From the NCBI GenBank assembly GCA_964023275.1, contig OZ029927.1, positions 21,626,980 through 21,690,979 on the forward strand: a stretch of 64,000 nucleotides of DNA. Reading direction: 5' to 3'. Source of the DNA: Norana najaformis (Eukaryota; Annelida; Clitellata; Crassiclitellata; Hormogastridae). Under the pieces are notes generated by a model. That model was not told the DNA's origin. It made no database searches and worked only from the letters and a program-made list of their open reading frames with translations. Made by a program: the position numbers and the translations under genes. Of this stretch, positions 11,801 through 60,960 are shown one piece after another (within the stretch, counting starts at the first letter, position 1; each line of letters begins with the position of its first letter).

Positions 11801-14292
11801 TCTCCTTCTCTTTTTCGTCATCCATCTGTAAAAGAAATCACCCGGGATACTTAACCCTTTGGTTGAGCTCTGCTTGTGAGGGGGAGCCTGCCAGCACTGT
11901 CTGCTTACTCATAAACTTTTTCTTTTAATGAATGTAACATCATTTATTATTATTATCGTTGCCACCAAAACCACACCACCACCACCAGCACCACCACCAC
12001 CATCAACAACAACAACAACACCACCACCAACAACAACATCATCAACAACAACATCATCAACAACAACATCATCAACAACAACATCATCAACAACATCATC
12101 AACAACAACATCATCAACAACAACATCATCAACAACAACATCATCAACAACAACATCATCAACAACATCATCAACAACAACATCATCAACAACAACATCA
12201 TCAACAACAACATCATCAACAACAACATCATCAACAACAACATCATCAACAACAACATCATCAACAACATCATCAACAACAACATCATCAACAACAACAT
12301 CATCAACAACAACATCATCAACAACAACATCATCAACAACAACATCATCAACAACAACATCATCAACAACAACATCATCAACAACATCATCAACAACAAC
12401 ATCATCAACAACAACATCATCAACAACAACATCATCAACAACAACATCATCAACAACAACATCATCAACAACAACATCATCAACAACATCATCAACAACA
12501 ACATCATCAACAACAACATCATCAACAACAACATCATCAACAACAACATCATCAACAACAACATCATCAACAACAACATCATCAACAACATCATCAACAA
12601 CAACATCATCAACAACAACATCATCAACAACAACATCATCAACAACATCATCAACAACAACATCATCAACAACAACATCATCAACAACATCATCAACAAC
12701 AACATCATCAACAACAACATCATCAACAACAACATCATCAACAACAACATCATCAACAACAACATCATCAACAACAACATCATCAACAACAACATCATCA
12801 ACAACAACATCAGAATTTGCATTTCAATGCTATAAATTCAGTGGAATAAAAAATTATTACCAGAAAACAGAATAAAACAGTCTTCTTCACCTAATGGTTA
12901 AAAAGAATCACATACATGGGTTCGACACGTCATTGAAAGCTTCTTGGCGAGCATCAGTTTCTCTTTCTCCTGATCCTCCCTCTTCTCTGTCTCGAGTTGT
13001 TTGAAGCGTCTCCAGTCATTTATAACACCTTTTGGTCCGGTCTGTGGACGACAAAATGACAAACCCTTCAACATAAACAACTCCCACAAAATTACATACA
13101 CCCGCACCTCTCTACAGTTTTCTGACCCATCATACAAACTCATCGATGCTCCACCGCTAGCAATTTCTGCTTTGGCCTTTCACTCAAAACATTCCTCTTT
13201 CACAGATCGTACCCTGACACCCCTTCTTCCTCTTATCTCTCTCTCCTCTCCAACCCCAAACACCACCCCCCATAGCTGCCACGCTGTCTCTCCGTCTGAC
13301 TTTTGGATCTTGCCCTGGAACCGAACCCTTTTTGCCTATCGATTTTGTTTTGACTGAGCACCTGTGAAGAAGCTGGTCCCCGCGGCACGGTTTTCATTGG
13401 GCTGTAGAAATCTTGGAATTACGATTACGCTTAAAGTAAAGCCTCCATGGCTCACAGGGGAAAGTAGGGCAGGTACAATCACAAAACAGCATGTAATGCT
13501 TATAAAATCTCTGCTTATATATAACACATAATAAAAAGGCACCTTTTCACACTTTTACGCTTCCAGAGGTAGTTTTATATTGGAATGTGGCTCCAGTGCA
13601 CTAATCTTTATGAGCACTACTTTGTGACCTTTGCAAACCACTTACACTTAATCCCACCAGGAAAAACTTAAGATCGGCCTATTCTAGTCAATTGTTTGTT
13701 CCAACTTCCCAAAAAAGACGTGTGGTTTTGTGCCTTTTCAAATGCTGGTCCACATCTACGGAATTCACTTCCAGCAGCTTTAAAAGAAGTTTTTCTTTCT
13801 CTTATATCACTTCGCAAACAATTGAAGACTTGTCTTCTTCCAGCTACCCACGCTTTTGAGCTGTAATGTAATGTAATGTAATGGCAACAAGTTATATAGC
13901 ATCATAAGTAGCAGGCTACTTCTAGGGTGCTTTACAAAGTCAATTTAACCTTTTTTTAGGTGAATTCATAAATTAACACGATATAAATATCTGATTAATA
14001 AGAATAATAGTTTGTACTCTGTATCCTAAGTGTGGGCGACCGTTTTATAAATGTGCACTTAACACAGTTCACTTTCTTTGTACAGAAGCTTGCTTACATT
14101 TGTGCAGCTTCCTGAATACTGGTTCAAGTCAGGCTCAGGTATGAATGTTGGCAACTTTCCACTTTTGTCTTTAGCTGATTCTTTGCCTTCACCCTTTGTC
14201 TCGTTGTCTGCATCATCGTCTTCATCTTCACTGCTACTACAGTAGTAGTGAGTTTTCTCTCCCAGAATCCGATCATCAAGACTGAGCGCCAT
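8886..14292 (-). CDS. PDCL: Phosducin-like protein, complete, seven coding exons
   Basis: Exons on the minus strand: 14292-14098, 13041-12916, 11825-11686, 11169-11067, 10669-10556, 9861-9737 and 8982-8886. All have GT-AG borders and consistent phase, giving 299 residues (vertebrate PDCL is about 300). The start MALSLDDRILGEKTHYY fits the family N-terminus and is followed by an acidic SSSEDEDDD run. Exon 2 holds the G-beta/gamma-binding helix TGPKGVINDWRRFKQLE and KKLSMTCRTH. Exon 3 has EEEFLKEYRQKRLEE. The thioredoxin-like domain spans exons 4-6 (VIHVYEKG; CLAQEYPHVKFC; VPALLIYRKGELIGNF). The tail is acidic SDSDSDFGVD. The family works with the CCT chaperonin to fold G-beta and load G-gamma in the cytosol. 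Intron 2 carries the CAT/CAA satellite and introns 5 and 6 carry SINEs. All key segments are intact. Confidence 0.93.
9275..9452 (+). mobile_element. tRNA-derived SINE (family B)
   Basis: GATAGCCAAATGGATTGAGC resembles a tRNA A-box region and ACAGGTTCAAGCCTACT a B box. The body CCTTGAGCAAGTCCTTCA and tail GCGCCTAATAAATGCAG match 24946-25125. It lies in PDCL intron 6. Confidence 0.8.
9475..9575 (+). mobile_element. 5'-truncated SINE (family B)
   Basis: ACCCTGAGCCAAGGCCTT and GGCACTTAATAAATGCAG are the 3' half and tail of the SINE at 9275-9452, which lies just upstream in the same orientation. Confidence 0.6.
10879..10940 (-). mobile_element. SINE 3' tail with (ATTAG)n end
   Basis: Reverse complement of the GCGCTATAGAAGTC plus ATTAG-repeat tail seen at 29470-29545 and 57640-57712. 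It lies between PDCL exons 4 and 5. Confidence 0.55.
11395..11510 (+). mobile_element. LINE 3' tail (family A)
   Basis: CCTGGACCGAACCCTTCTTA, ATTTTGACTGAGCGGG and ACAGAAATCTCGAGTTTACA are the family-A 3' end, sense on +. It is about 110 bp long, inside PDCL intron 3. Confidence 0.65.
11956..12812 (+). repeat. CATCATCAACAACAA satellite in PDCL intron 2
   Basis: A nearly pure array of the 15-mer CATCATCAACAACAA interrupted by 12-mers CATCATCAACAA. Between successive 12-mers I count runs of roughly 4, 4, 6, 7, 6, 6, 3 and 2 fifteen-mers, then a final 8, so there is a loose higher-order pattern. Since 15 and 12 are multiples of three, several frames stay open for almost 300 codons (His/Gln, Thr/Ser, and Met/Leu on the other strand). 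These are not genes. The array lies between PDCL exons 2 and 3 and must be spliced out. Confidence 0.97.
13050..13435 (+). mobile_element. LINE 3' end (family A)
   Basis: Coding remnant FSDPSYKLIDAPPLAISALA, then a CT-rich 3' region, CCTATCGATTTTGTTTTGAC, GCACCTGTGAAGAAGCTGG and GGGCTGTAGAAATCTTGG with an ATTACGATTACG tail. It is sense on +, in PDCL intron 1, and starts next to exon 2. Confidence 0.8.
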
Positions 14293-16417: not shown

Positions 16418-19400
16418 TCAATTTTTATTTTTGGCTTTTAGAAAATTCTGAAACATGTTCTGTGCTTCTTCTGCGAAAAGTGGTTGAAGCCTTTCTAAAA
16501 TTAAGTCCGACAGTTTTAACCGTTCGTGGCTGATCCCTAATGCAACATTTCCCTCACTCTCTGCACAAGGCATAGTGATCAAGTCGTCTTCAATCTGCCA
16601 ATAATTCAAAGTTGTATCACCCAACTGCAGATGAGCTACTGCCATGCTCTCAATTACAGAACAGCTGTCAACAGTTTTATCAGCAATATCTAGCAGTTTC
16701 TGGGAGCTGTGTTCTCTGCATTTTACTACACCTTCACAATTATCTGAAAGTAACAAGGGTACAGACAGATCAAAACCAGTTTTACTAAAATTAAAACTGT
16801 CAGTATTTTCTTTAGCTTTTTGTCCCAACAGTTCCTGGGAACTGTGTTCTCTGCATTTTAGAACGTCTTCATACTCGTTTAAGGGTATTGGTGGTGTAGC
16901 CAGATCAAAACCAGTTTTACTAAAATTAAAACTGTCAGTGTTTTCTTTAGCTTTTTGTCCCAACAGTTCCTGGGAACTGTGTTCTCTGCATTTTAGAACA
17001 TCTTCATACTCGTTTAAGGGTATTGGTGGTGTAGCCAGATCAAAACCAGTTTTACTAAAATTAAAACTGTCAGTGTTTTCTTTAGCTTTTTGTCCCAACA
17101 GTTCCTGGGAACTGTGTTCTCTGCATTTTAGAACATCTTCATATTCGTTTAAGGGTATTGGTGGTGAAGCCAGATCAAAACCAGATTTACTAAAATTAAA
17201 ACTGTGAGTATTTTCTTTGGTTTTTGATCTCTGAAAATACTTCTCTAGCTTCAATTGTGTATGAGCATTCTTCCATCTCCAGATGTCCGCTGTTTCAGCA
17301 AAATCTATTAATCTATTTTCTTCCACTTTTTTCACACCGTTACTGTTCTCAACTTTTTGTTCATCTGTCCAATTATCTGCATTTTCCATAGTCAGATCGT
17401 GTACCACACGAGGCTCAGATTCCTGACCTTCTTTGTCTCCGAAGTCATGTTCATACACAACACCCTTATGATGCACTAAAGGTTTAAACTTACATCTTTT
17501 CATTATCGAGCTACGAATTTGACTGATCTTTCCTCGGTTGCTAGTTCTTGTTTTGACAAAGGAATCTCTCTTAAACATTGCAAAATCATTTGGTGGGCAG
17601 AAAGAAGGTGCTGGAGACTTGTCTAAATATTCAGCAAAGCACGACATCTCTCCGCGTTCAGGAATAGCTCTACCAAGACGGTCCGTAACGTTCGTCAGAA
17701 TCGGAATCACGGCTCTTGGACCAACTATAGAAACAAATTCCTGCAGCTCTGTAAACGACGAATGGTCAGAATACGGAACAACGAACACGTCGCTTCGGTT
17801 CAACCCATTGTTTAGATTAAGCACAAGATACAGTGCCGTGGGAATTATAGCAAGCGTGGGCATCTCTTCATTCCAGAAATCCATATTCCTCTGGTTTATC
17901 TGTCCCTGATCCACGACCTGTATTCTAGTTTCTGATTCTGTCGTAGTAAATACATTTGGCACCTCAAGCAATTCAAGCCGGTGCATACGCTCTTCCGTGA
18001 CGTAGATTTGCACACGAAAGTGCTTCGCGATAGCCACCAGCAGACCCTCTTTTCCAAGCTTCCGAAGTCCGATCACAATCCGATGGTCAGGATGGCATGA
18101 GATTATCTGCAGAATTTCAGTCATGGCCTGCTCACGTGATGGAAAATCGCATCTCGGACTGCAGAAGGTGTTATCGAGGTACAACACGTTGACGGCCGAA
18201 GAACAGACACGAGCAAAAGACTCCTCATAGTTCAGAGACTGCGAGTATCGGAAGTCACCCGTGTAGAGAATCTGGCCAAAGTAGCCCTCGAAAAGGAACA
18301 TGACAGCTCCCGGGCAGTGATTGGCGTCGATCAACGTCACTGAAAGAGATTCGTTGCTTTCTGTAGCAAACTGAAGACAGTGGCTTTCATTCAAAGCAAG
18401 TCCACGAACTTGCTGTGGATTCAGCTGCAAAGTCAACAAAAATAAAACTGTATCAACTTCTTCAGTGACACAAGTTTAGGTAGATTGTTTAGGGCAGGCC
18501 ATGTCTGCAGTGCTTTTGAGCAGTCCTTAAAAGGCGTTATATAAGTGTCTAGATAGTTAATACATACATACACATAAATAAAAGCCACTGGGGGTAATCA
18601 AGAATGTAATTCAGAAGTTACCTTTATCCCCTACTTGTCCAGTTACCTGCGCTTTCAAGATGAATTCATAAACTAGTGCTACATAAATACAAATAATAAA
18701 TAAATATAAATAATAAATAAATATAAGTAATAAATGTCTGAATAATAATAATAATACTAAATACATAAGAATCTCATTACAGAACACATCAGTTTTTTAT
18801 CACTGAAATAAGAAAACTGAATAGCATTGCTTCGAGCCGAACTAATCAGAGGCGCTGATCACATGAATTCTGATACAAAACTATAGGAAACATGGATCGT
18901 AAATCTATTTGTTTTAAAATAAGACTATGTTAGAGCACAGTACTTTTACAACAACACAGTACTCACAAAGTTAGCATTGTAACAAGGTTCCAGCATAATT
19001 CAGTACGTTGTGGCTCACACAGAAATGAAGCTGCCAGATAATTGGAATATTTCTTGCATGCCATCTTTAGCCATCGGCGCCTTAGACAAGGTTAAACGAT
19101 TACAGTATCATTTAATGGCCTTAATAAATGACATCATAGTCATCAGGTCGCTGTTTAATTTTGCTAAATGTATGCCCTGGCACAACCAGGGTGCGTTTCA
19201 TGTCTGCTTCCAGTAAGTGCAGAGTTAACTTTCAGGTGCTCTGTTTTCAGTGCAAGCACCATGTGTTCCTTAGGCATTCTTAGAGTACACTCAGTGGAAA
19301 CTCAGAACAGAAACTGACTACACTCCCAGCTTAACACAATATGACACCATATTTCTAGGGTACCGCTTACACCTGCAGTGACCAGCAGCGAAATTACATA

Positions 19401-37141: not shown

Positions 37142-37910
37142 ATTCCAGTCCCCGCTGAGACAAGGTATGCGCCTGTGTCGGGCAGCACAAACGGATGTCG
37201 TCGGACTGATACCACTGCGTCTTCCAGAGTCAGCACGAGGTCGCTTTCGTTTTGGCGTCAGGTGACGAAACTCAAAGTGCTGAAAACGAATCCAGACTTC
37301 TCGCAGGAAGGAAGCGCTAGCAGAGAATTTACTATCAGCCACTGGTGAAGGACATTCCGCCTGCAATGGGAACAGACAAAAACAACTGCGAATTAATAAA
37401 TAATTTTTTGCGATATTTATTAAGCAAAACCTACACACATACCAGAAAGGGCATCGGCAGAGTTTTGAAAGTGAGGTCAGAGGGCAATGGCTGACAAATT
37501 CGGAAGTGGAACAAGTAGGGATCGTAGTGTTCTGTGTAAACAAAAACTTTAACGATCTTTTCCTAGTCGAGCCTTAGCCGACTGTTTCTCGTGTTGCAAT
37601 TATCAGAAATTTCCACGAACTCTTGTTACTCATCGCAGTCGTTTTTCTTGCTTTCTTGAGTCATTTCTCCCACTCCAACACACCATCTACTGAACAAGGA
37701 TTTAAATTCCCATTTCCTCCCCAGAAGACTTCCCAGGCTTTAAGCCCAGCTATGGGAAAATGCACATAACATTAATTTTTAAAGCCCAAATTGGACGGCC
37801 AAAAACACGTGCTATAAATATTTTAAGTGGAGGTATCTCCCTGTAACCACACCCTTGCTCATGCTGGCACTCCCTAATATTTCTAATTACTGTGCCTTTG
37901 ATTCAAGTTC

Positions 37911-38850
37911 TATGCTGCTGATTCAATTCCCATGCCTCTGATTCAATTCCTGCACTTCTGATTCAATTCCCATGCCTCTGATTCAATTCCTGCACTTCTG
38001 ATTCAATTCCCATGTCTCTGATTCAATTCCTGCACTTCTGATTCAATTCCCATGCCTCTGATTCAATTCCTGCACTTCTGATTCAATTCCCATGCCTCTG
38101 ATTCAATTCCTGCACTTCTGATTCAATTCCCATGTCTCTGATTCAATTCCTGCACTTCTGATTCAATTCCCATGCCTCTGATTCAATTCCTGCACTTCTG
38201 ATTCAATTCCCATGTCTCTGATTCAATTCCTGCACTTCTGATTCAATTCCCATGCCTCTGATTCAATTCCTGCACTTCTGATTCAATTCCCATGCCTCTG
38301 ATTCAATTCCTGCACTTCTGATTCAATTCCCATGTCTCTGATTCAATTCCTGCAGTTCTGATTCAATTCCCATGCCTCTGATTCAATTCCTGCACTTCTG
38401 ATTCAATTCCCATGTCTCTGATTCAATTCCTGCACTTCTGATTCAATTCCCATGCCTCTGATTCAATTCCTGCACTTCTGATTCAATTTCCATGTCTCTG
38501 ATTCAATTCCTGCACTTCTGATTCAATTCCCATGCCTCTGATTCAATTCCTGCACTTCTGATTCAATTCCCATGTCTCTGATTCAATTCCTGCACTTCTG
38601 ATTCAATTCCCATGTCTCTGATTCAATTCCTGCACTTCTGATTCAATTCCCATGCCTCTGATTCAATTCCTGCACTTCTGATTCAATTCCCATGCCTCTG
38701 ATTCAATTCCTGCACTTCTGATTCAATTCCCATGTCTCTGATTCAATTCCTGCACTTCTGATTCAATTCCCATGCCTCTGATTCAATTCCTGCACTTCTG
38801 ATTCAATTCCCATGTCTCTGATTCAATTCCTGCACTACTGCTTCAATTTC
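37911..38850. repeat. 20/40-bp minisatellite, about 23 copies of the 40-mer
   Basis: Two related 20-mers alternate strictly: ATTCAATTCCTGCACTTCTG and ATTCAATTCCCATGYCTCTG. The Y position is C or T in an irregular order. The array is almost uninterrupted for over 900 bp, upstream of the F-box gene. Confidence 0.97.
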
Positions 38851-41221
38851 CATGCAGACAGGCTGATTCTACTGCAATAGGCTACACTAACACAGCAAGG
38901 CTTAATTTTTCAACAGCAATTTAACAACAGTATGAATCATCAAATCAGAACAAGTTGTGTGCATATTTTCCACGAATGTTAAACAAATTCTCAGACTAGA
39001 CCACCAGTATCCAATTTCTCCAGACACAAATTAGATATTTAATGCAGATACTAATGATAAATAACAATAACATTTACAACAGAAATACGATCAATCAAAT
39101 CTCCTGCAGCTTACCCGACTCATAGCGAGCACGGTAATCACGACGGAATCTCCAGTAACGATTTATTGATATTTTTCAAACTCAAAAACTATTCGACTAT
39201 TCAGCTAGAAACTCTGCAATTATTTCATTCAGAGAAATCTTCTCAAAGTATATTTCTTGAAAAGCGATCCGAATTGCAAGAACAAGAAGATATCTCATTC
39301 ATCAACGAAACTTTTTCAGACTAAATTTCTTCAAAACCTACTCCAGCATAAAAACTAACACGATATTTCATTCATAAAGAAAACTTTTTCAAACTAAATT
39401 TCTTCAAATCCTATTTTCACTCAACCGCCAGTTCCCTAAAGCTGCAAGTCCGCTTATAAACAAAACGGGATATTTTCATCGCTTTTTAGCATTGACCAGA
39501 CAGACAGACAGCCGACCAAGATGGAAAGCCTTTCCACGAAACACCTCCCATAGCCGCCGCGGCCATGTCGTCAACCACCACCGGCCTCTGCCCATCGCCA
39601 ACCGCATCTTTTCAGAGAAAGCGGAGGTCGTGCAGTACACAACAGCTGTGTGTGAGCCAGATGTGTCATTATTATCGGACCGGTTTTACTGCCCAGACGC
39701 CGACATCGGCGAACTTTCAGCCGAGCCATAAAGATCAGATAGCTGCGGGTAAAATCGACAAAAGGGAGAAGAGTTGAAACTCTAACGCAAGGGGCGTGCG
39801 CCGTTGATTTTAATAGGGCGGTTCGCTGCCGACTTGCACGTACGTATTCGACCTTCACGTCGGCAGACCACAATCAATGTCTGAAAGGCTGCATATGGGC
39901 GCTACATAATGTTTAATTGCACCGACGATTCAAAGGCGCCGAGCAACACGTCGATTGGCCCGATTCATCAGAAGATTTATTTGTGTTGCATGACACTACA
40001 CCGATCTTTAAAGGCGCTAAATAATTGCTCAAGACAGGCTCACAAAAGGCGCCACATAAATAAAAAAGACGCGTCTATTTGTGCTTATACCTGAGCATTT
40101 ATATGGCGCATGCAGAGGAATCTCTTACATGCTCTGGAAAATGGCTCTCTGTGGGACACAAAAGCTGAGCCTGAAATGATAAAAGCTTGGCCTGGTTAAG
40201 ATTTTTTGTTAAAGTCACGGTTCAGCAAATAAAATTCAGTCTTTCCCTATACAACATACAATACGATACAACTATAATTTAATAATGCCCTTCTTGCAAA
40301 ATGCAGAAGTGCGCACTGAAGCCGGGAAACAGTAAACATTAAGAGCCGTAAACAGACTTAAAGAGGTAAGTTTTCAGCTTGGAGCGGAAAAGTCACAGTA
40401 AGAAAGTTGCAAATGCCCTTCATCACCTTTGGGTAACCCCTCCCTTGCTCCCCTCTGCGAAAGTCCTTTAAAGACGACCCATATACACAAACTTTAAGCG
40501 AAATCTGTATCTTCTATACTACCTGTCTTAAACATAAAAGCATTCTGCTGCATAGATTTGAAAATAATGCAGGTCGAGAAATAAAATAACCTGGATTCTC
40601 AAAACTACGCAGGTGTTCGGTAATTATAAAATGGGGGCATACACCGAACGAATTGCTCCTCCACACATGACTGACGCCTGCCGTTACCGTTTACGGTCAA
40701 TCGATTTCTCGTCACGTCCTTCCTCACGACGCTACCAAAGTAGAACATTCCCCTTCAGTTTCCACTGTTGATGATTAATTCTTTCAATATTTTCTCCGCC
40801 AAAGCCCAACGTGTTTACCTTTGCTACACTTGTCTTCATCCCCATAATGTCCAATTCGAAAACACTGCGCAACAAGATCTATGTCATCCTTTAATCGTTT
40901 TGTTTATCAAGTCCGTGTATTGACACGCCGCAGACATCGTTCCGGGCGGCATTCATCACCTATCCAGGTATTCTGTGTACATTGTCGGAGACGCTGTTGT
41001 CTACATGTTTTCACTGGACTGTTGTTTCAAACAAACGCTCTCGGAGCTCACAAACTAGCGCTTCTCGGAAATTTTTGACACGTGACTTAAATGATACAAG
41101 CTAGACAGTTTTTCACTGGAAATGACCTGAAATCGACTCGAATTTCACATCTGATGAGTCGCGCTGGTTCGTTTAAACTGTGTTGTTAGTTATAATTCCT
41201 GTGAACAAAGACTGAGTGACA

Positions 41222-41320: not shown

Positions 41321-41619
41321 CTAATTAATCAATTAATTAATTAACTACTTAGTTAATTAAGTAATTTTGTAATTAATCATACTAAATTAGGAATTATGTT
41401 CCTTAATCCACAGCTGCTCAGCGCTATCAATTGATTAATTGCCTAATTACATAATTAATTAATTAGGTAAATTTTAACTAGATAGTGGTACTTAATAATA
41501 ACAAGAACAACAATAATAATTCTGCGCTTCAACTCGATTGCCTTCCCGGGCACCTTTGCCATCTCAGAATACAATTTTTTCTGGGTGATCTTTTTACTTC
41601 AAGTTTTAAATTAGAAAAT

Positions 41620-42570
41620 TCAAGTTTTAATATAGAAAATTCAAGGTTTAGTTTTCAATGAGAAAATTAAACTTTTCAATTAAAAATTCAAGTTTTCAAT
41701 TAGAAAAATCAAGTTACCAATCACAAAATTCAAGTTTTCTATTATAAAATTCATCTTTTCTATTAGAAAATTCAAGTTTTAAAATAGAAAATTCAAGGTT
41801 TAGTTTTCAATGAGAAAATTAAACTTTTCAATTAAAAATTCAAGTTTTCAATTAGAAAAATCAAGTTACCAATCACAAAATTCAAGTTTTCTATTATAAA
41901 ATTCATCTTTTCTATTAGAAAATTCAAGTTTTAAAATAGAAAATTCAAGGTTTAGTTTTCAATGAGAAAATTAAACTTTTCAATTAAAAATTCAAGTTTT
42001 CAATTAGAAAAATCAAGTTACCAATCACAAAATTCAAGTTTTCTATTATAAAATTCATCTTTTCTATTAGAAAATTCAAGTTTTAAAATAGAAAATTCAA
42101 GGTTTAGTTTTCAATGAGAAAATTAAACTTTTCAATTAAAAATTCAAGTTTTCAATTAGAAAAATCAAGTTACCAATCACAAAATTCAAGTTTTCTATTA
42201 TAAAATTCATCTTTTCTATTAGAAAATTCAAGTTTTAAAATAGAAAATTCAAGGTTTAGTTTTCAATGAGAAAATTAAACTTTTCAATTAAAAATTCAAG
42301 TTTTCAATTAGAAAAATCAAGTTACCAATCACAAAATTCAAGTTTTCTATTATAAAATTCATCTTTTCTATTAGAAAATTCAAGTTTTAAAATAGAAAAT
42401 TCAAGGTTTAGTTTTCAATTAGAAAATTCAAGTTTTCACTTAGAAAATTCAAGTTTTCACTTAGAAAATTAAAGTTTCAAGTTTTCAATTAGAAAATTCC
42501 AGTTTTCAATTACAAAATTCAAGTTTCAAGTTTTCAATTAGAAAATTCCAGTTTTCAATTACAAAATTCA
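41620..42570. repeat. 152-bp AT-rich satellite with nested ~19-bp subrepeats
   Basis: The landmark CAAGGTTTAGTTTTCAATG recurs at 41642, 41794, 41946, 42098, 42250 and 42402, exactly 152 bp apart. Each unit is itself built from variants of GAAAATTCAAGTTTTCAATT. After 42420 the simple subrepeat continues in less ordered form. This is a higher-order repeat of five full units. Confidence 0.96.
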
Positions 42571-48671: not shown

Positions 48672-50758
48672 ATGAAAAGAAAAATGGGAGAAGTGCATTT
48701 GGAGCGTGAAGTTTTGGTTAGTTTATTTAATTATTTTGTTTTATAAGGACTACATGATTACATTTAATAAAAATTGTAACAAATTACAGTGCGTTCACTT
48801 AGATAGTAGGAATAAAGCCATGTTAATTGTTTGTGATTTTAAAGAAGAATTTTGTAAACAACGTTCATTTCTTGATAGATACTACGCTTCGATTAGAGTT
48901 GGTGGGCGGATTTCATTATCGACGATGTAAGACAGGAGCACATCAAAACGATGCATGTCATGTATTCAGCATCCTATGTATCGGAATGACATAAAACGAC
49001 GTTGATTTAATGACAAATTGAAAATTAGTGAACGAATTATGTTTATTATTTTAAGTGACTGTACATTTATTTTTTGTATTAATGTTCATCTGGTATATCT
49101 GAATTGTACTGAATTGTACGTCAGTGTGTACATCTTCTCCTTCAGAAAAACTACTTATGGACTCAGCTGTTTGGTAAGCCGCCAATAGTAATGAACGCAT
49201 CAGCTAAGACTACACATTTCACCCTAAGGGCATGCCCATTTGTTAATTGCCCCTTATGAATATTCAGTAATATACGTATGTACTTGTGTATGCATAATTC
49301 TGCATAATTGTTATTGACTGTTTAGCGTAGAGAGTATGAATGTATCCTCAGAGAAGAAGTTTGTTCAGTTCTGATGAGTCTGCAGACGTTGTTAAGCGTG
49401 AGTGTTCTCGCATTTCTTAAATTACAACTTAATAAGTTTAAGTTGGAAAGCAAACCTGTGATTTTCACACATTGCTGTGAGGTTACTTAAAAGGTGCTAT
49501 GTAAAGAATCAGATGTAACGTACACATAGGCTTACTGTGTAAACTGAATGATGTATGTATGTGTATGCAATGTATGTGCGTATTTATATATGCATATGTG
49601 AATGCATGTGTATGTTCGTATATATGTATGCATTTTTGTATGTGTAATTATTTGTATGTGTATGTATCTATGTATCTGTGTGTGTATGATTGTATGTATA
49701 TATTTATGTATGCGTGAATGCTTGCTTGCATATATGTATGTATATGCAAGTATGTATGTTTATATGTATTTATGTATGCATGTATATATGCATGCACGTA
49801 TGTATGTGTGTGTGTATATCAGAACATCTATGCAGTTACTTTCAAGTTAGGTTTGTATACAAATGTATTGTGTATGTATTTTTGGCTACACTTGTCATCA
49901 GTTAAGTTACCTGGCAGTTTCTTGCCTTGTCTGGCCTTACCTTGTCTTTAACTTACTGGTACCCTGTCTTACTTTGCCTTACCTTGTCTTACATTACCTT
50001 GTATTGTCTTATTTTGTCTTACCTTACCTTACATTATTGTACCTCATGTGACCTTGCCTTGTCTGGCCTTACCTTGCCTTGTCTGGCCTTACCTTGCCTT
50101 GTTTGGCCTTACCTTGCCTTGTCTGGCCTTACCTTGCCTTGTCTGGCCTTACCTTGCCTTGTCTGGCCTTACCTTGCCTTGTTTGGCCTTACCTTGCCTT
50201 GTCTGGCCTTATCTTGTCTTGTCTGGCCTTACCTTGTCTTGTCTGGCCTTACCTTGCCTTGTCTGGCCTTACCTTGCCTTGTCTGGCCTTACCTTGCCTT
50301 GTCTGGCCTTACCTTGCCTTGTCTGGCCTTACCTTGCCTTGTCTGGCCTTACCTTGCCTTGTCTGGCCTTACCTTGCCTTGTCTGGCCTTACCTTGCCTT
50401 GTCTGGCCTTACCTTGCCTTGTCTGGCCTTACCTTGTCTTGTCTGGCCTTACCTCATCTTGTCTGGCCTTACCTCATCTTGTCTGGCCTTACCTTGTCTG
50501 GTCTTACCTTGTCTTTAACTTACTGGTACTCTGTCTTACTTTGCCTTACCTTGTCTTACATTACTTTGTATTGTCTTATTTTGTCTTACCTTACCTTACT
50601 GTACCTGATGTGCATTGCCTTGCCTGATCTTGCCTCTGACCTGCCTACCCCTTCCCTGCCTTATTTTCTTCTGCCACCCTTGTCTAAACCGCTTCTCAAG
50701 CGTAAATGTTGAAACTCTAGGTAGACCAGAAGACATCGTAGAAGTAATTAGACGAAAG
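48672..50758 (+). CDS. ROGDI: Tentative 5' exons of ROGDI
   Basis: Three small open segments with good splice borders connect in phase to the solid ROGDI exons: 48672-48716 (MKRKMGEVHLEREVL, donor GTTAGT), 49146-49173 (after CTTCAG; KNYLWTQLF, donor GTAAGC) and 50721-50758 (after CTCTAG; RPEDIVEVIRRK, donor GTATGT). The sum of all twelve exons is 984 bp, divisible by three, giving 327 residues. LEREVL...W...L aligns loosely with the leucine-rich ERAVLEEEFRWLL start of the human protein, but the typical EVHAVL segment is not clear. True first exons may differ. Confidence 0.4.
49600..49830. repeat. TATG/TGTATG-rich microsatellite
   Basis: Irregular TATGTATGTG and GCATGTATATATG runs, keeping several frames open (Met/Cys/Tyr/Val peptides). 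Not coding. Confidence 0.85.
49916..50690. repeat. 20-bp minisatellite flanked by ~110-bp direct repeats
   Basis: The core at about 50050-50500 is some 22 copies of GTCTGGCCTTACCTTGCCTT. On both sides lies a related but distinct ~110-bp block containing TTTAACTTACTGGTACYCTG and TATTGTCTTATTTTGTCTTA (about 49935-50045 and 50507-50615). The array ends about 30 bp before a putative ROGDI exon. Confidence 0.93.
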
Positions 50759-50816: not shown

Positions 50817-53800
50817 GACGCTGCCAACAGCTTAAACTTCAACTTTTTGCCAGGTATATTTACTTTCTATGTTTACATTTCGAAATGTTTACAGCTGCTA
50901 TTGATTGTAAAATGCCCACAAAATGTTTGGAAAACAATCAACCAAAGTCCTGTTAGTTGAAAACAAGACTGCTGGCACAACTGATGTATGTGCCTGTGTG
51001 TGTGTGTGGGTGTGTGTGTGGGTGTGCATGTGTGTGTGTGTCTGTGTGTGGGTGTGTGTGTGCCTGTGTGTGGGTGTGAGTGCATGTGTGTGCGCCTGTG
51101 TGTGTCTGTGTGTGGGTGTGCATGTGTCTGTGTATGGGTGTGTGTGTCTGTGTGTGGGTGTGCATGTGTGTGTGTGTGCCTGTGTGTGTGTTTGTGAAGC
51201 CACTTAAAATGAAAAGTGCTGTGCACATGACTGTCTAATTGATGAGAATTGATGTAGGTTGAAATGAATGCTGAGCAGAGTGAGTTTTGACCTTCTGGAT
51301 GTTGACTGTTGACCTGATTGCGGCTTAGCTTTGGTTGATGCCATTGGTTGATGCCAAGTGCATTCAACACTGGTGCATTAGAAGTAACATTATTATTATT
51401 ATTATTGTTGTTGTTATTACTGTTGTTATTGTTATTATTATTTTTATTATTATTATTTTTTTTATTATTATTATTATTATGAGTGCATCAAAGTTAAACA
51501 GCATGCATACTTCTGAGTAGATGTCCCAAATTGAGCCGTATACAGACACCCGCATAATTTGAGTCAAGTTATTTAAAGTCCTTTAATGAACCCAGAGTTA
51601 TTTAGGGCAGCCACTTTATGATTGAGAGCCTTTGCAAAAGCGCCAACAGCTCGAACCGGATCTTCAACAAGACCGACCGCTCCAAGCAAAACAGAGAACA
51701 TGGCTTTTGTTATTTCAACGCTTATTGATTCGGCTAACATCAATATGACCTTTTCCCGCCTCTGTTGCGCTGCGCCATGGATACGTGTGCCGCGGTTTTA
51801 TGCCGGACATTCGGAGGAAATGCGAGAGTGCGGTGGAGCTGGACCTGCACGCCGCTGCCTCTGTTCGTCTGTGTTGCCGCCTCGATTCTTTGCACGAAGA
51901 TTTATTTCCATTCCAGAGCACAAGTGATTTCCGAAGGCTTTGTTGTCCGCTACGAGAGTTGTCTGGTGTCCTGTTGGCTTGGATCAGTGATGCTTCACAG
52001 ATGCACAATGTAGTATTTGGGTCACAGGATGCGTAATGCAGTATTCAGTTTACGGGGTGCGTAATGTAATATTCAGGTTACAGGGTGCGTATTGTAATCT
52101 TGGGTTACGGGATGTGTATCGTAAGTAGGTTACGGAGTGCATAACTTAATACTTGGGTTACAAGATGTGTCCGGGTTTCCCAAGTTGTTTTTCTGGTAGC
52201 AGACGACATCGAGTGTGCTCTGATACCAGATATGTCTGTGAGTAGCCTTGCTGTGTATGTGTCTGACGTTTCCAGACATTACTTTCTTCAGTGAACTTGA
52301 CACAAAGGTCTCATTTTGATCAACATGTTAAAAATGGCTGGAAAATGTGGCTCAAATTTATTTAAGTCCAATGTAATATTTTGGTTAAGGGTTGGTTGGG
52401 GATTTTCCAAACAGTTTATAGTTGTGTAGCTTTTTGATTGAGTGCTCGGGTTATTTGGTTTCTGCCAAAAGCAGCCACGTTTATTGTCACAGAAAGTGGC
52501 CGTCATGTGATGTGGATCAAAGGTTAGAGCTTGGATTGGATTTGGGTCTTGGAATACAAATTTTGATTGGTTGGAATGATGGATTCCTCTTCTGGTTCAC
52601 TGCCCTCAGGCAGGTTCAAACGTCCGATGACGCCACTCCTCTCTGTGCTGAGCTTCTTCTTTCAACTTGCTCTATCTGTCCGCCATCATCCAATCGAGCA
52701 GCATCTGTCTGGGTCTTCCTCTTGTCCTTCTCCCCTCCATTCTGCCCTCAGTTACGGTTCTCAAGAGTGAGTCCCCTCTCAGTATGTGACCAATCCATTT
52801 TCTCTGTCGCTTCCTTATTGTAGCGATAGATCTTTCTTCTCCAACTCTTTTCAGCACCTCCTCGTTTGTTACATGCATTGCATACGTTATAATGGATTAC
52901 AGATTTCAGTTGGATTGCAGATGTTGGATTAGACTTCAGGTGTGGGATTGGACTTTGGATCTTGGTCTGGGCTTCAGGCTTTGGACTGGATTTTGGTTCA
53001 TGACTAAGCTGTGACAGTGGAAGCTCCTTACGATGCTGTCGTTGGGATCCGTGCAAAATACTGTCTTATGAAGAGGATTTTTCAGCCCACCGATCTTAGG
53101 ACTTCACACAGCCCAAGATCGGGACGGTTGGCAGAGTCGTGGAAATGGCAACGCTGCGGAGAGGGGCATGCCATCTATGATGATGATTTTTATGGGGATT
53201 GGTTATGTCGAGGTTGTGTTCCAAAGCCAAATGAAGTTAGGGATTCCTATCTCAGTCTGTGTTAAATCAAAATTCATGTCGTAATGAAGCATTATACAAG
53301 GAGATCCTGGTGTATCTTTTTCTGATCGTGTTTTGCTGTTGTGTTGGCGCAGTCCCGGTGGAGTTTGCTTGGCTGCTGCGTTCGAATGGACTCGTGCCAA
53401 GATTTAGACTTGGGAGCTGTACATAAATGAATACCTTGCACATTTATGCTGCGATGCACTGGGGGATTCGTTTTAAAAAGATTGGAATCGTTTTATATCT
53501 AGTTCATTGTTATTATTATTTTAAATCTTGTTTTCGTTATGTATTAATTAATTATTATCTTATGTATTATGATTTTAAAGCTTGTTTTGATTATTCATTA
53601 TTTAATTAAATAATTATTTTTGTTTGTAATGATTTTAAATCTTGATTATTTTATTTTTGTATTATTTAATTTATTTATGTATTGTTATTTTATTTGTTAT
53701 TATACTTAAATCTGAATTTAATTCTGAATATTTCCTTGTCCATTGTTCAACATTTTACTGGAAGTTATGTGTACGGTGTTTTTCTACTTGCAGAACAGGG

Positions 53801-56800
53801 TTTCACATTCAAACCAGAAAAGTTCCTGTTATCGAGTCCAAAGTAAGCCGTGTTTGTGTATTTTAAAAGCTGCTTTTATACAGTTTTATTATGAGCCGTG
53901 TTTGTGTATTTTAAAAGCTGCTTTTATACAGTTTTATTATGAGCCGTGTTTGTGTATTTTAAAAGCTGCTTTTATACAGTTTTATTATGAGCCGTGTTTG
54001 TGTATTTTAAAAGCTGCTTTTATACAGTTTTATTATGAGCCGTATTTGTGTATTTTAAAAGCTGCTTTTATACAGTTTTATTATGAGCCGTGTTTGTGTA
54101 TTTTAAAAGCTGCTTTTATACAGTTTTATTATGAGCCGTGTTTGTGTATTTTAAAAGCTGCTTTTATACAGTTTTATTATGAGCCGTGTTTGTGTATTTT
54201 AAAAGCTGCTTTTATACAGTTTTATTATGAGCCGCGTTTGTGTATTTTAAAAGCCATGTTTGTGTATTTTAAAAGGTGCTTTTATACAGTTTTATTATCA
54301 GCCGCGTTTGTCTATTTTAAAAGCTGCTTTTGCACATTTTTATAATGACTGAGTCTTCATAGCTTTTGTTCAGTGTGGCTGTTTTCATCTGTTGTATTTT
54401 TTGAAATTTTTTTAGATATTAACTTTCTTATTTTAAAAATGAAATTGCCATTCCAACAAGAGTAATTTAAAGTGAAATTGAATGAAAATATTACATTGCT
54501 GTTGAAACGGCAGTAATTGTAAGTTTACCATTGAGCTGAAACACTTTGTGGATAAGAAAGAAATGTCTTTGACAGATACTTATAGGAGCTGTATAAATGT
54601 TTGGTTACATTACATCCAGCTGAGGGTGCTCTATCAGTTTACCAGTAGAGTATGAAACAGTACAAATATCATTTTGATGGTGATGAGTGGTGTGTTGTTT
54701 GTAGTGTCAACCAGCAGGTGAAGTGTATGGTCACGATTGTTGGCGACTTAATCTATGAGGCGGTTAGTAACTCTTCTGCTTAACAGAGAAATCATTTCAG
54801 ATATAATAAAGATTTTCTAGTGAGATGTTCATAATTCGGTTGATTTTCAAAACGTGAAGAACCGTTCTGAGGTAAGTGGTAGGTGAATGATTCCAGCGTA
54901 GAAAAGTTCTAATTTTGCCAATGTTGTGATTTTTCTTATTTGATTGCAATATTTCTTTTTATGGCATTTTAAAGAGTTTATAATGATGGTTTGATATCAA
55001 TTTTTAGTTTTTGTTTCATTCCTTTGTACGAATTTAAATGCCTGAAATAATTTGGTGCATTGAAAATAAGTTTCTGCTAACGTATTGTAATGATGCTGAA
55101 AATGAAATTATGTCATGCATTTACAGATGAGAGCCGCTGTAATGTAAAGAGGAGTCTAATCAGACATTTATGCAGTGACTTTAAAAAGCACCAAGTCATG
55201 TTACAGTGGCATGTGGTCTGTTTGGTAGCACGCTAGGTGTTTAATCCAGTTGTTGTGGTTTTGAATTTGCTTAGCTGACCTCGTGTGATGACCTTGGATG
55301 ACCTGTTTGACCCTTAAAGATTCAGATTTACTTACCTTGAGCACATAAAGAGTGCAAGAAATGAATAAATAAAAATAAAAATGATACATCTCCTGTTATT
55401 TTGAGACTTCGGTGCCGTTTATTTTGCAGACGCATTTCCTGATTCGTACTAATTGTGATGTTTAGATTTTAAGTGGAAGGTCTTTCAAAGTAGCTGCCAT
55501 TTAAAGATTAGTTGCTTATGTATGCTGATGCTCCGTGTTCTTTTATCAGGATTTGGTGCTGAAGCTGCAGAAACAGCAGATGGTTCCGTATCAGACGCGT
55601 ATCTATCCGGATATTCCGTGGAAGCTTCAGCAAGTAAGAAAGAAACTGGAGACAGCCAGTCTTTAAATAGAGCTTCAGCAAGTAAGAAAGAAACTGGAGA
55701 CAGCCAGTCTTTAAATAGAGCTTCAGCAAGTAAGAAAGAAACTGGAGACAGCCAGTCTTTAAATAGAGCTTAAGTAACGCAAGTGTTGGTTCTGTTCATC
55801 AGATAGGATAAGGTTTCTAGAAGATTATTAAGTTTAATCTTAAGTTATGGACAAGAGCACAAGAGCAACTGCAGACAAAGTTCAAATTTTTCCTTTCTGT
55901 AGAATTGCTGATGCTGAGCTATACTTGATGTTGGCCTTAGTTTTACATTTTATTCAACCACCTTTGACAAATCACTAACCATCACTGATTGTTGCACAGA
56001 AAATTGCAACAGATTTTGACTGGACTTTTCAACGAGTTTTGACTATGGTTTGCCTTGAAATTACGGTTTCTGATATCGTATGCTGTATGGGAATGGCGTA
56101 GATTAGAAGCCGTAGATTAGATCAGAATGCAGCGCTCTTGAAGGGAGTGTGCTAATGAAAATCATTGATTGACATTCTGTGTGAGTAGACGCTATTCAGT
56201 GAGGCAAGCAACTCTGGTCTTCCCTGGTGATCCGCGAAAATATGTTCTTTTAATAATAATAATAATAAGACAATTTATATAGCGCCGTAACACGGTCGAG
56301 GCCGAAGAAAAGGGCGCTGTACATAAGTTCAGGCGAGTAGAGGCTATTCATTGAGGCAAGCAACTCTGGTCTTCCCTGGTGATCCAGGAAAATATGTTCT
56401 TTTGAGTAAGTAATGCATTTGTTGAGTGACCGTATGACCATCAGCAATGCGAGGAATCATAGGGAGATGTACATGCTTACAAATAAATATTTAGGATTAA
56501 GACACTCCTTCAAATTGAAGGACATTTCAGCTGCTGTGTGAATATATCGGCAGGCCAACCTTGTGACATTTTTTTAATTGATCATTTTTGGTGATAAAGT
56601 TGAATCCTGATGTGTCTTCTGTTTCAGCTTCAGGATGCAAGAAACCAAGTCCTAAAGGCCCTGTCCATTATTGAAAACTTTGAAGGATCATTTAAATTCT
56701 CAACTGGGCTCCAGGTTTTGAATGTAAGTCTAAGTCAAAATCTGTAGAGGTTGTGTTGAATGTTATCTTTAAGTAAACGAGGTTTATATATTCTTGTGCT

Positions 56801-60299: not shown

Positions 60300-60960
60300 A
60301 ATTCTTTAATTCTAACCCAGAGAGGCAGTTTGAAGTGTTGACGACTTCATTTTGCTGAGTTTAGACGGATGAGGACCGTTGGTCTTTCCTCTTTTCATCA
60401 CTTGTTATTCCCACCAACTGCGTATGGTCTGTATGTGCATTTTTATCACTGAGTTTGCTAGTGGAGCAGAAATCGTGAAAAATCTGAGAGTTCAGAGATT
60501 TGAACCCTGACCTTTGCACTGACAGTCCAGTATGCTACCTGCTAGGCCAGCAGTTCTTAAACATTTTGGTCTGAAGACCCTGTTACGTTCTTAAAAATTA
60601 TTGAGGACCCACAGCTTTTATTTATGTGGGTTATATCTATCAGTATTTACCCTATTAGAAATTAAAACTGAGAAATCAGTGTATTAATTCATTACAACAT
60701 AACAGTAATAAACCCATTATATATTCATATTAAGGACATATTTTCTAGTAAAAGTGACTATTTTCTTGTGATATTATGGAAATAGTTCCAAGTATTTTCT
60801 CAGTATTATTATGAAAATAGTTTAGACCTTGAGGATTCCTAGAAATGGTCTCGGGAACTCCCAGGGGTCCCCAAGATCACACTTTGAGAACCACTGTGCT
60901 AGACTGTACTCATACCAAGACCATGTGAGCAACCCATGGGTACACAAGTGCATGCGAGCA
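60300..60960 (-). mobile_element. tRNA-derived SINE interrupted by a hAT element
   Basis: On the minus strand, GGTAGCATACTGGACTGTC (A-box side) and CAGGGTTCAAATCTCTG (B box) mark a SINE. It is cut at 60547 by the hAT insertion, and sequence with a repeated TGCTAG resumes at 60897. The body resembles 29735-30005. Confidence 0.6.
60548..60896. mobile_element. Non-autonomous hAT (Charlie-like) DNA transposon, 349 bp
   Basis: Imperfect terminal inverted repeats: the left end starts CAGCAGTTCTTAAAC and the right end, reversed, starts CAGTGGTTCTCAAAG. It is flanked by 8-bp target-site duplications TGCTAGGC (60540-60547) and TGCTAGAC (60897-60904), as expected for hAT. There is no transposase ORF, so it is a MITE-like internal-deletion copy. 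Internal phrases such as TTATGTGGGTTATATCTATC and TATTAGAAATTAAAACTGAG strongly resemble, from memory, a hAT-Charlie repeat abundant in placental mammals. Confidence 0.88.

What the first reader, a model, noticed from the sequence alone, without database searches (positions are those of the whole stretch)
60540..60904. hAT element resembling a mammalian Charlie-type repeat in an invertebrate genome, with target-site duplications
Seen: a 349-bp element with inverted ends and 8-bp duplications TGCTAGGC/TGCTAGAC, inserted in a SINE. Known: hAT elements make 8-bp duplications, and hAT families such as SPIN moved horizontally between tetrapods and invertebrates. From memory, its interior (GGACCC..AGCTTTT.TTTATGTG; TTAAAAATTATTGAGGACCC; TATTATTATGAAAATAG; CCAGGGGTCCCC) follows a repeat common in placental mammals closely enough to suggest horizontal transfer or a very slowly diverging family. 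The surrounding genes are not mammalian, so simple contamination of the whole window is unlikely.
Basis: partly seen in the sequence, partly recalled or inferred. Interest (0 to 1): 0.75.

Follow-up and report, generated by a model that had tools for sequence, protein, structure and literature searches.

The report
Mammal-like jumping DNA in an earthworm
A short, long-dead piece of jumping DNA in an annelid (earthworm-like) genome belongs to a family whose sequence is almost the same as one remembered from placental mammals, which points to an ancient jump of DNA between very distant animals, although the mammal side still has to be checked in a repeat database.

Summary
60548-60896 is a 349-bp non-autonomous hAT element with inverted ends and 8-bp duplications TGCTAGGC/TGCTAGAC. 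It belongs to a resident family (348 and 382 first-look candidates, 40 scored each time) dispersed over a 608-Mb genome, so it is not contamination. The genome has haemoglobin-linker genes of annelid type, closest to Lumbricus. Target duplications centre on TA in 21 of 22 good copies, the Buster-group signature. Longer copies show an internal deletion of a larger transposase-bearing element. The family looks extinct: the best scored copy is 91% like the consensus.

But the recall predicts what the window does not show: recalled ends match the annelid consensus at 321 of 335 aligned positions, siding with it at 48 of 49 sites where the window copy departs; the recalled interior equals the majority of nine unprinted loci at 206 of 209 columns. 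If the recalled sequence is mammalian, horizontal transfer is the only reasonable reading.

The parts
60548..60896 (+). non-autonomous hAT (Buster-type) element, 349 bp, one copy of the resident family; 85.3% identical to the family majority sequence
60548..60561 (+). left terminal inverted repeat CAGCAGTTCTTAAA (family form CAGCGGTTCTCAAA)
60883..60896 (+). right terminal inverted repeat TTTGAGAACCACTG
60540..60547 (.). left target-site duplication TGCTAGGC (TA at places 4-5)
60897..60904 (.). right target-site duplication TGCTAGAC
60456..60547 (-). SINE-like repeat ending near the insertion point (orientation judged by eye from tRNA-like boxes; start approximate)

Best explanation
The element is a dead, internally deleted, non-autonomous copy of a Buster-group hAT transposon that once spread by cut-and-paste in an annelid genome. 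Shown: inverted ends; 8-bp duplications centred on TA; dispersed star-like copies; longer relatives in which the left part abuts decayed transposase-coding DNA on the opposite strand. Inferred: the transposase of the longer form bound the shared ends, cut the short forms out and pasted them at nnnTAnnn sites; activity stopped tens of millions of years ago. The same family, at about 96-99% consensus identity, was present in the placental-mammal lineage (recalled, probably a Charlie family, name not checked), so it moved horizontally between the two lineages, directly or through third parties, near the time when both amplified it.
For: Family and dispersal. Duplications: 22 of 40 copies with at least 6 of 8, control 3.2%; TA at places 4-5 in 19 of 22 on the left, 17 on the right, 21 on either side, as described for Buster-group TcBuster (nnnTAnnn, passage of PMC3499496). 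Deletion derivative: in 7 of the 9 loci (of 58 searched) that match the recalled interior at 85% or more, the family's left part, ending at majority position 233-239, directly abuts it; L037 (728 bp), L039 (463 bp) and L089 (695 bp) have both ends. Age: 37 of 40 copies, mean 89.1% identity, K2P 0.119 to the majority; best of 40 scored 91%; mean pairwise 0.801, maximum 0.862 over 666 pairs. Host: 29 matches to PF16915; linker best match 2gtl L1, E 1.7e-56 (Lumbricus recalled). Mammalian likeness: recalled ends 226/236 and 95/99, 48 of 49 discriminating sites; interior 206 of 209 columns; recalled peptide with branch length near 0 amid eight decayed annelid copies; 40 interior matches at 78-93%. 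A recalled MER20 repeat gives 0, a weak control, since the tool warns that an empty answer alone shows nothing.
Against: The mammalian sequence is recalled, not retrieved; its species and family name rest on memory. The recalled ends were typed, after the majority was printed, so a reader must take my word that the recall came first; identities leave out gaps (the recall has 8 bases more in the left part). The interior was written, after L039 (printed) had shown about 90 nt of it; the other loci had not been printed. Loci for one search were found with the recalled peptide, which favours similar copies. In the peptide search the best E-value belongs to a sister lineage at 53% identity, not to this family. 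No full-length autonomous copy was found: neither of two longer copies, on C1 and C6, has a recognised right end in place. A second mammalian control, MER5A, did not complete.
Confidence: 0.82

Rival explanations
1. An ordinary annelid hAT family whose resemblance to mammals is limited to the conserved terminal repeats; the recalled 'mammalian' sequence actually comes from another animal.
For: No mammalian DNA could be searched. Buster-group similarity extends over about 106 bp of the terminal regions (PMC4298943, results section part 1 of 2). Five paper searches for sequence strings gave only a human ALDH1A3 primer that covers the terminal repeat alone and one unrelated listing.
Against: The likeness runs through non-terminal and coding DNA at 96-98.6%. 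Two readers assigned it to placental mammals, although both may share one memory.
Confidence: 0.13
2. Contamination of the annelid assembly by mammalian DNA, or an assembly artefact.
For: The likeness to a mammalian repeat itself.
Against: Matches lie on 16 contigs and on the remaining one, C10; many have their own target duplications and all decay independently from one majority; the left flank is a resident SINE-like repeat.
Confidence: 0.01
3. Vertical inheritance from the ancestor of annelids and mammals with very slow change.
For: Related but distinct transposase lineages are numerous in this genome, so the group is old there.
Against: The non-coding ends have no reason to stay 96% identical for more than 500 million years (divergence recalled), while copies inside this genome have drifted to about 80% pairwise.
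Confidence: 0.02

Closest known systems
Placental-mammal hAT-Charlie repeat (recalled; probably Charlie1/Charlie1a, name not verified)
   Same: ends and transposase C-terminal DNA recalled at 95.8%, 96.0% and 98.6% identity to the annelid majority, gaps left out
   Different: host phylum; the annelid has deletion forms of about 300-357, 413, 463, 695 and 728 bp
Buster1 and Buster2 (Tang et al. 2015, PMC4298943; abstract and results part 1 of 2 seen)
   Same: Buster-family MITEs from internal deletion, shared between distant animals (Buster2 including a bat) at more than 87% identity; similar ends, e.g. CAGGGCTTCTTAAAC
   Different: different families and hosts; average divergences 0.9-13.5%, mostly lower than here
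SPIN (hAT, Buster group)
   Same: same group (PMC3499496, passage) and, from recall, horizontal transfer between tetrapods and invertebrates
   Different: different sequence (recalled); not compared here
ZBED5/FAM200-like domesticated Buster genes
   Same: recalled similarity of the transposase C-terminus
   Different: those are host genes; not compared here

Membership tests
hAT superfamily | 8-bp target-site duplication | tested here: met
   22 of 40 copies agree at 6 or more of 8 places; 3.2% of 1560 control pairs
hAT superfamily | short inverted ends beginning CAG | tested here: met
   majority CAGCGGTTCTCAAA ... TTTGAGAACCGCTG
hAT superfamily | transposase with C-terminal dimerisation domain | tested here: inconclusive
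   an open-frame relative, L092, 42% like the recalled peptide, scores PF05699 at E 4.9e-4, 20.3 bits, just under the cut-off of 21.4; the family's own decayed transposase was not scanned
Buster group | target duplication consensus nnnTAnnn | tested here: met
   TA at places 4-5 on at least one side in 21 of 22; signature from PMC3499496
Buster group | transposase groups with Buster/SPIN in a tree | not tested
   no reference transposases were at hand; a PDB sequence search with L092 found 0
Recalled placental Charlie family | 80% or more identity over 80% of length to the curated consensus | not testable with these tools
   no Dfam/Repbase; 226/236, 95/99 and 206/209 to the recalled sequence
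Horizontally transferred element | identity far above that of vertically inherited neutral DNA between the hosts, patchy distribution | tested here: inconclusive
   identity as above, one side recalled; distribution in other species not testable (the genome has no relatives here)

The most novel reading that the evidence does not exclude
A human repeat family came from a soil or freshwater invertebrate pool: the annelid genome holds about six sister lineages of this transposase at 39-57% identity to the recalled peptide, so annelids or their associates may have been the source from which an early placental mammal acquired the family, and the annelid copies give an outside clock for that event.
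Probability: 0.3. Interest if true: 0.8.

Novelty: new member of a known kind. Interest (0 to 1): 0.64.

Why it matters
Transfers of hAT elements between mammals and invertebrates are known, but the cases I recall are later, affect a few mammal lineages, and involve insects, planarians or snails. A family carried by placental mammals in general (recalled), nearly identical in an annelid, would push such exchange back towards the origin of placentals, give human DNA fossils an outside source that can be dated, and raise the question of the carrier between soil animals and mammals.

Tried and rejected
Contamination or artefact: rejected. Mammalian DNA as accidental contamination in other collections: viral contigs gave 0 and 1 stretches for exact 20- and 17-mers and 64 for an interior 18-mer, with no BLAST match beyond; genome contigs gave 7 for an 18-mer. 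In those 7 and the one viral stretch, alignments to the majority were 23 nt at most, and weak interior alignments (65-100% identity, E 0.016-0.86) are taken as chance. The peptide search of viral contigs had 32 pattern matches and 0 relatives; plasmids and phages gave no match. Sequence strings in papers: searches found 0; one search found one human primer (passage), terminal repeat only; one search found one C. elegans paper (listing only). Molluscan haemocyanin gave 0, but its controls also rang nowhere, so this does not show absence. Host species: Bimastos eiseni was considered (17 chromosomes) and rejected, since its largest chromosome is 71.78 Mb against 63.9 (passages); Indoaustriella scarlatoi was rejected at 1.58 Gb (passages); the species was not found (listings, 22 of 24 and 12 of 385). 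Rfam at gathering cut-offs and tRNA scans of the window: 0. A weak second match to the family at 53594-53730 (67%) is taken as chance.

Literature seen: abstract and part 1 of 2 of the results of PMC4298943; passages of PMC10294476, PMC7070016, PMC5753468, PMC3499496. Searches listed 25 of 36, 15 of 236 and 20 of 149 papers; no title or abstract start listed reports this family in annelids. The library misses most subscription journals.

Full report
What is there. The window holds a 349-bp element at 60548-60896, bounded by imperfect inverted ends and by TGCTAGGC/TGCTAGAC. Searching the whole genome in which the window lies (608,420,607 bases, 17 contigs) with this stretch gave 348 candidates, of which 40 were scored, giving 43 matches; besides the window itself they are 73-85% identical and lie on all contigs except C10. 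With the family majority sequence as query there were 382 candidates, 40 scored, identity 85-91%, including one on C10. The 14-letter end CAGTGGTTCTCAAA occurs 177 times exactly, the reversed control 8 times; this end is shared by other families, since of the 8 loci cut around such sites only L050 shows a long match at over 70%.

Anatomy. I fetched 40 copies with flanks. Ends were placed by best match; for several copies (for example L011, L014, L015, L027, L029, L042, L046) one end is poor or lost. 22 of 40 have flanking 8-mers agreeing at 6 or more places; 3.2% of 1560 mismatched pairs do. In those 22 the central two bases are TA on the left in 19, on the right in 17, on either side in 21. 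That is the nnnTAnnn signature stated for TcBuster of the Buster group (PMC3499496, passage). A majority sequence of 37 copies (three length variants dropped) has 336 positions; copies are on average 89.1% identical to it, K2P 0.119, and the window copy, at 85.3% and 0.165, is the second most decayed. Mean pairwise identity is 0.801 and the maximum 0.862 over 666 pairs, close to what a single burst followed by independent decay would give. These copies were selected by similarity to the window copy, so the mean is biased. No scored copy exceeds 91% to the majority, so the family looks long silent; with neutral rates of 2-4e-9 per site and year (assumed) this is some tens of millions of years.

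The longer form. Three of the 40 copies are longer (413, 463 and 728 bp). With a recalled peptide as query, 150 matches were scored of 307 candidates; by E-value the best is a sister lineage at 53% identity with an open frame, while the closest by identity are decayed pieces at 73-89% over 36-66 residues; the rest are mostly other lineages at 30-57%. Of 58 loci searched, nine match the recalled interior DNA at 85% or more. In seven of these the family's left part, ending at majority position 233-239, directly abuts it; in five the left part starts at position 1, in L098 at 38 and in L090 at 55. L080 has a partial left part about 15 nt away, and L050 is rearranged. L089 is a 695-bp derivative with both ends. 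On C1 (L176/L174) a longer decayed copy has 25%-identical homology to residues 193-555 of the open-frame relative L092, and the left end; neither it nor the copy on C6 has a recognised right end in place. So the short element is an internal deletion of a larger element whose transposase reads on the opposite strand.

Host. The haemoglobin-linker domain PF16915 (annelid by recall) gives 29 matches and molluscan haemocyanin 0, although the controls of that search rang nowhere either. A linker fragment is closest to linker L1 of 2gtl among 8 PDB sequences, E 1.7e-56 (Lumbricus recalled). The host is therefore very probably an annelid, perhaps a clitellate. Two named 17-chromosome candidates were excluded.

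The mammalian link. No tool holds mammalian genomes or Dfam. Recall is only a lead, so I tested what it predicts. The recalled ends match the annelid majority at 226 of 236 and 95 of 99 aligned places, gaps left out (the recall has 8 bases more on the left); at 49 places where the window copy differs from the majority, the recall agrees with the majority 48 times and with the window once (typed after one search had printed the majority). The recalled interior, 268 nt, written, finds 40 scored of 50 candidates in this genome at 78-93%, and equals the majority of nine loci at 206 of 209 columns with a clear majority of at least three copies, 3 ties apart. These loci had not been printed; printed copy L039 covers about 90 nt of the interior. 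On a midpoint-rooted tree of transposase fragments the recalled peptide has almost no branch of its own and sits amid eight decayed annelid copies, themselves 57-86% identical to it (group support 0.90); about six other annelid lineages, at 39-57%, lie outside. As a control, a recalled MER20 repeat found nothing, with the tool's warning that an empty answer alone shows nothing; a MER5A control did not complete. The recall is thus a real sequence nearly equal to the ancestor of the annelid family; that it is mammalian, and probably a Charlie1-type family, is memory.

Mechanism and history. The likely course is: an autonomous Buster-type hAT entered the annelid lineage or was already among its sister lineages; its transposase moved deletion derivatives by cut and paste to nnnTAnnn sites; the copies then decayed. 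One of them landed at or near the end of a SINE-like repeat. If the recalled family is mammalian, an identity of 96-99% between sequences that are otherwise free to drift excludes vertical descent and requires horizontal transfer, direct or through intermediates, near the time when both lineages amplified it. The sister lineages in the annelid make an invertebrate source plausible, not shown.

Comparison. Buster-family MITEs shared between invertebrates, and in one case a bat, are published (PMC4298943), and SPIN is the classic case (recalled). A survey of vertebrate transfers found few involving mammals and birds (PMC7070016, passages). The listings of my searches of the open library (25 of 36, 15 of 236, 20 of 149 papers shown) held no report of this family in annelids. 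The kind of event is known; the pair of hosts and the apparent age would be new.

Noticed in passing
window 16766-17226: A 135-bp tandem repeat (3.4 copies, 97% matches) lies in frame within the C-terminal tail of a DCLRE1-type (DNA repair metallo-beta-lactamase) reading frame at 16418-18475 on the minus strand.
   Followed up: no
window 37893-38855, 12004-12812, 41610-42476, 50051-50504, 53846-54254: Minisatellite arrays with units of 15 to 152 bp, several with 95% or more matches between copies.
   Followed up: no
L077-L106 (own genome): The genome carries about six distinct related hAT transposase lineages, some with long open frames (for example L092, 598 aa; L097, 435 aa), and some with right ends 70-77% like this family.
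   Followed up: partly
L059-L069 (own genome): Eleven places give the same PF05699 match at identical score (E 1.5e-22, open frame 81 aa), which suggests a different, more recently active hAT family.
   Followed up: no
G000 C1:9374001-9733765: Six matches to the transposase interior within 0.36 Mb, five of them ending at query position 192-193, suggest a locally duplicated truncated copy.
   Followed up: no
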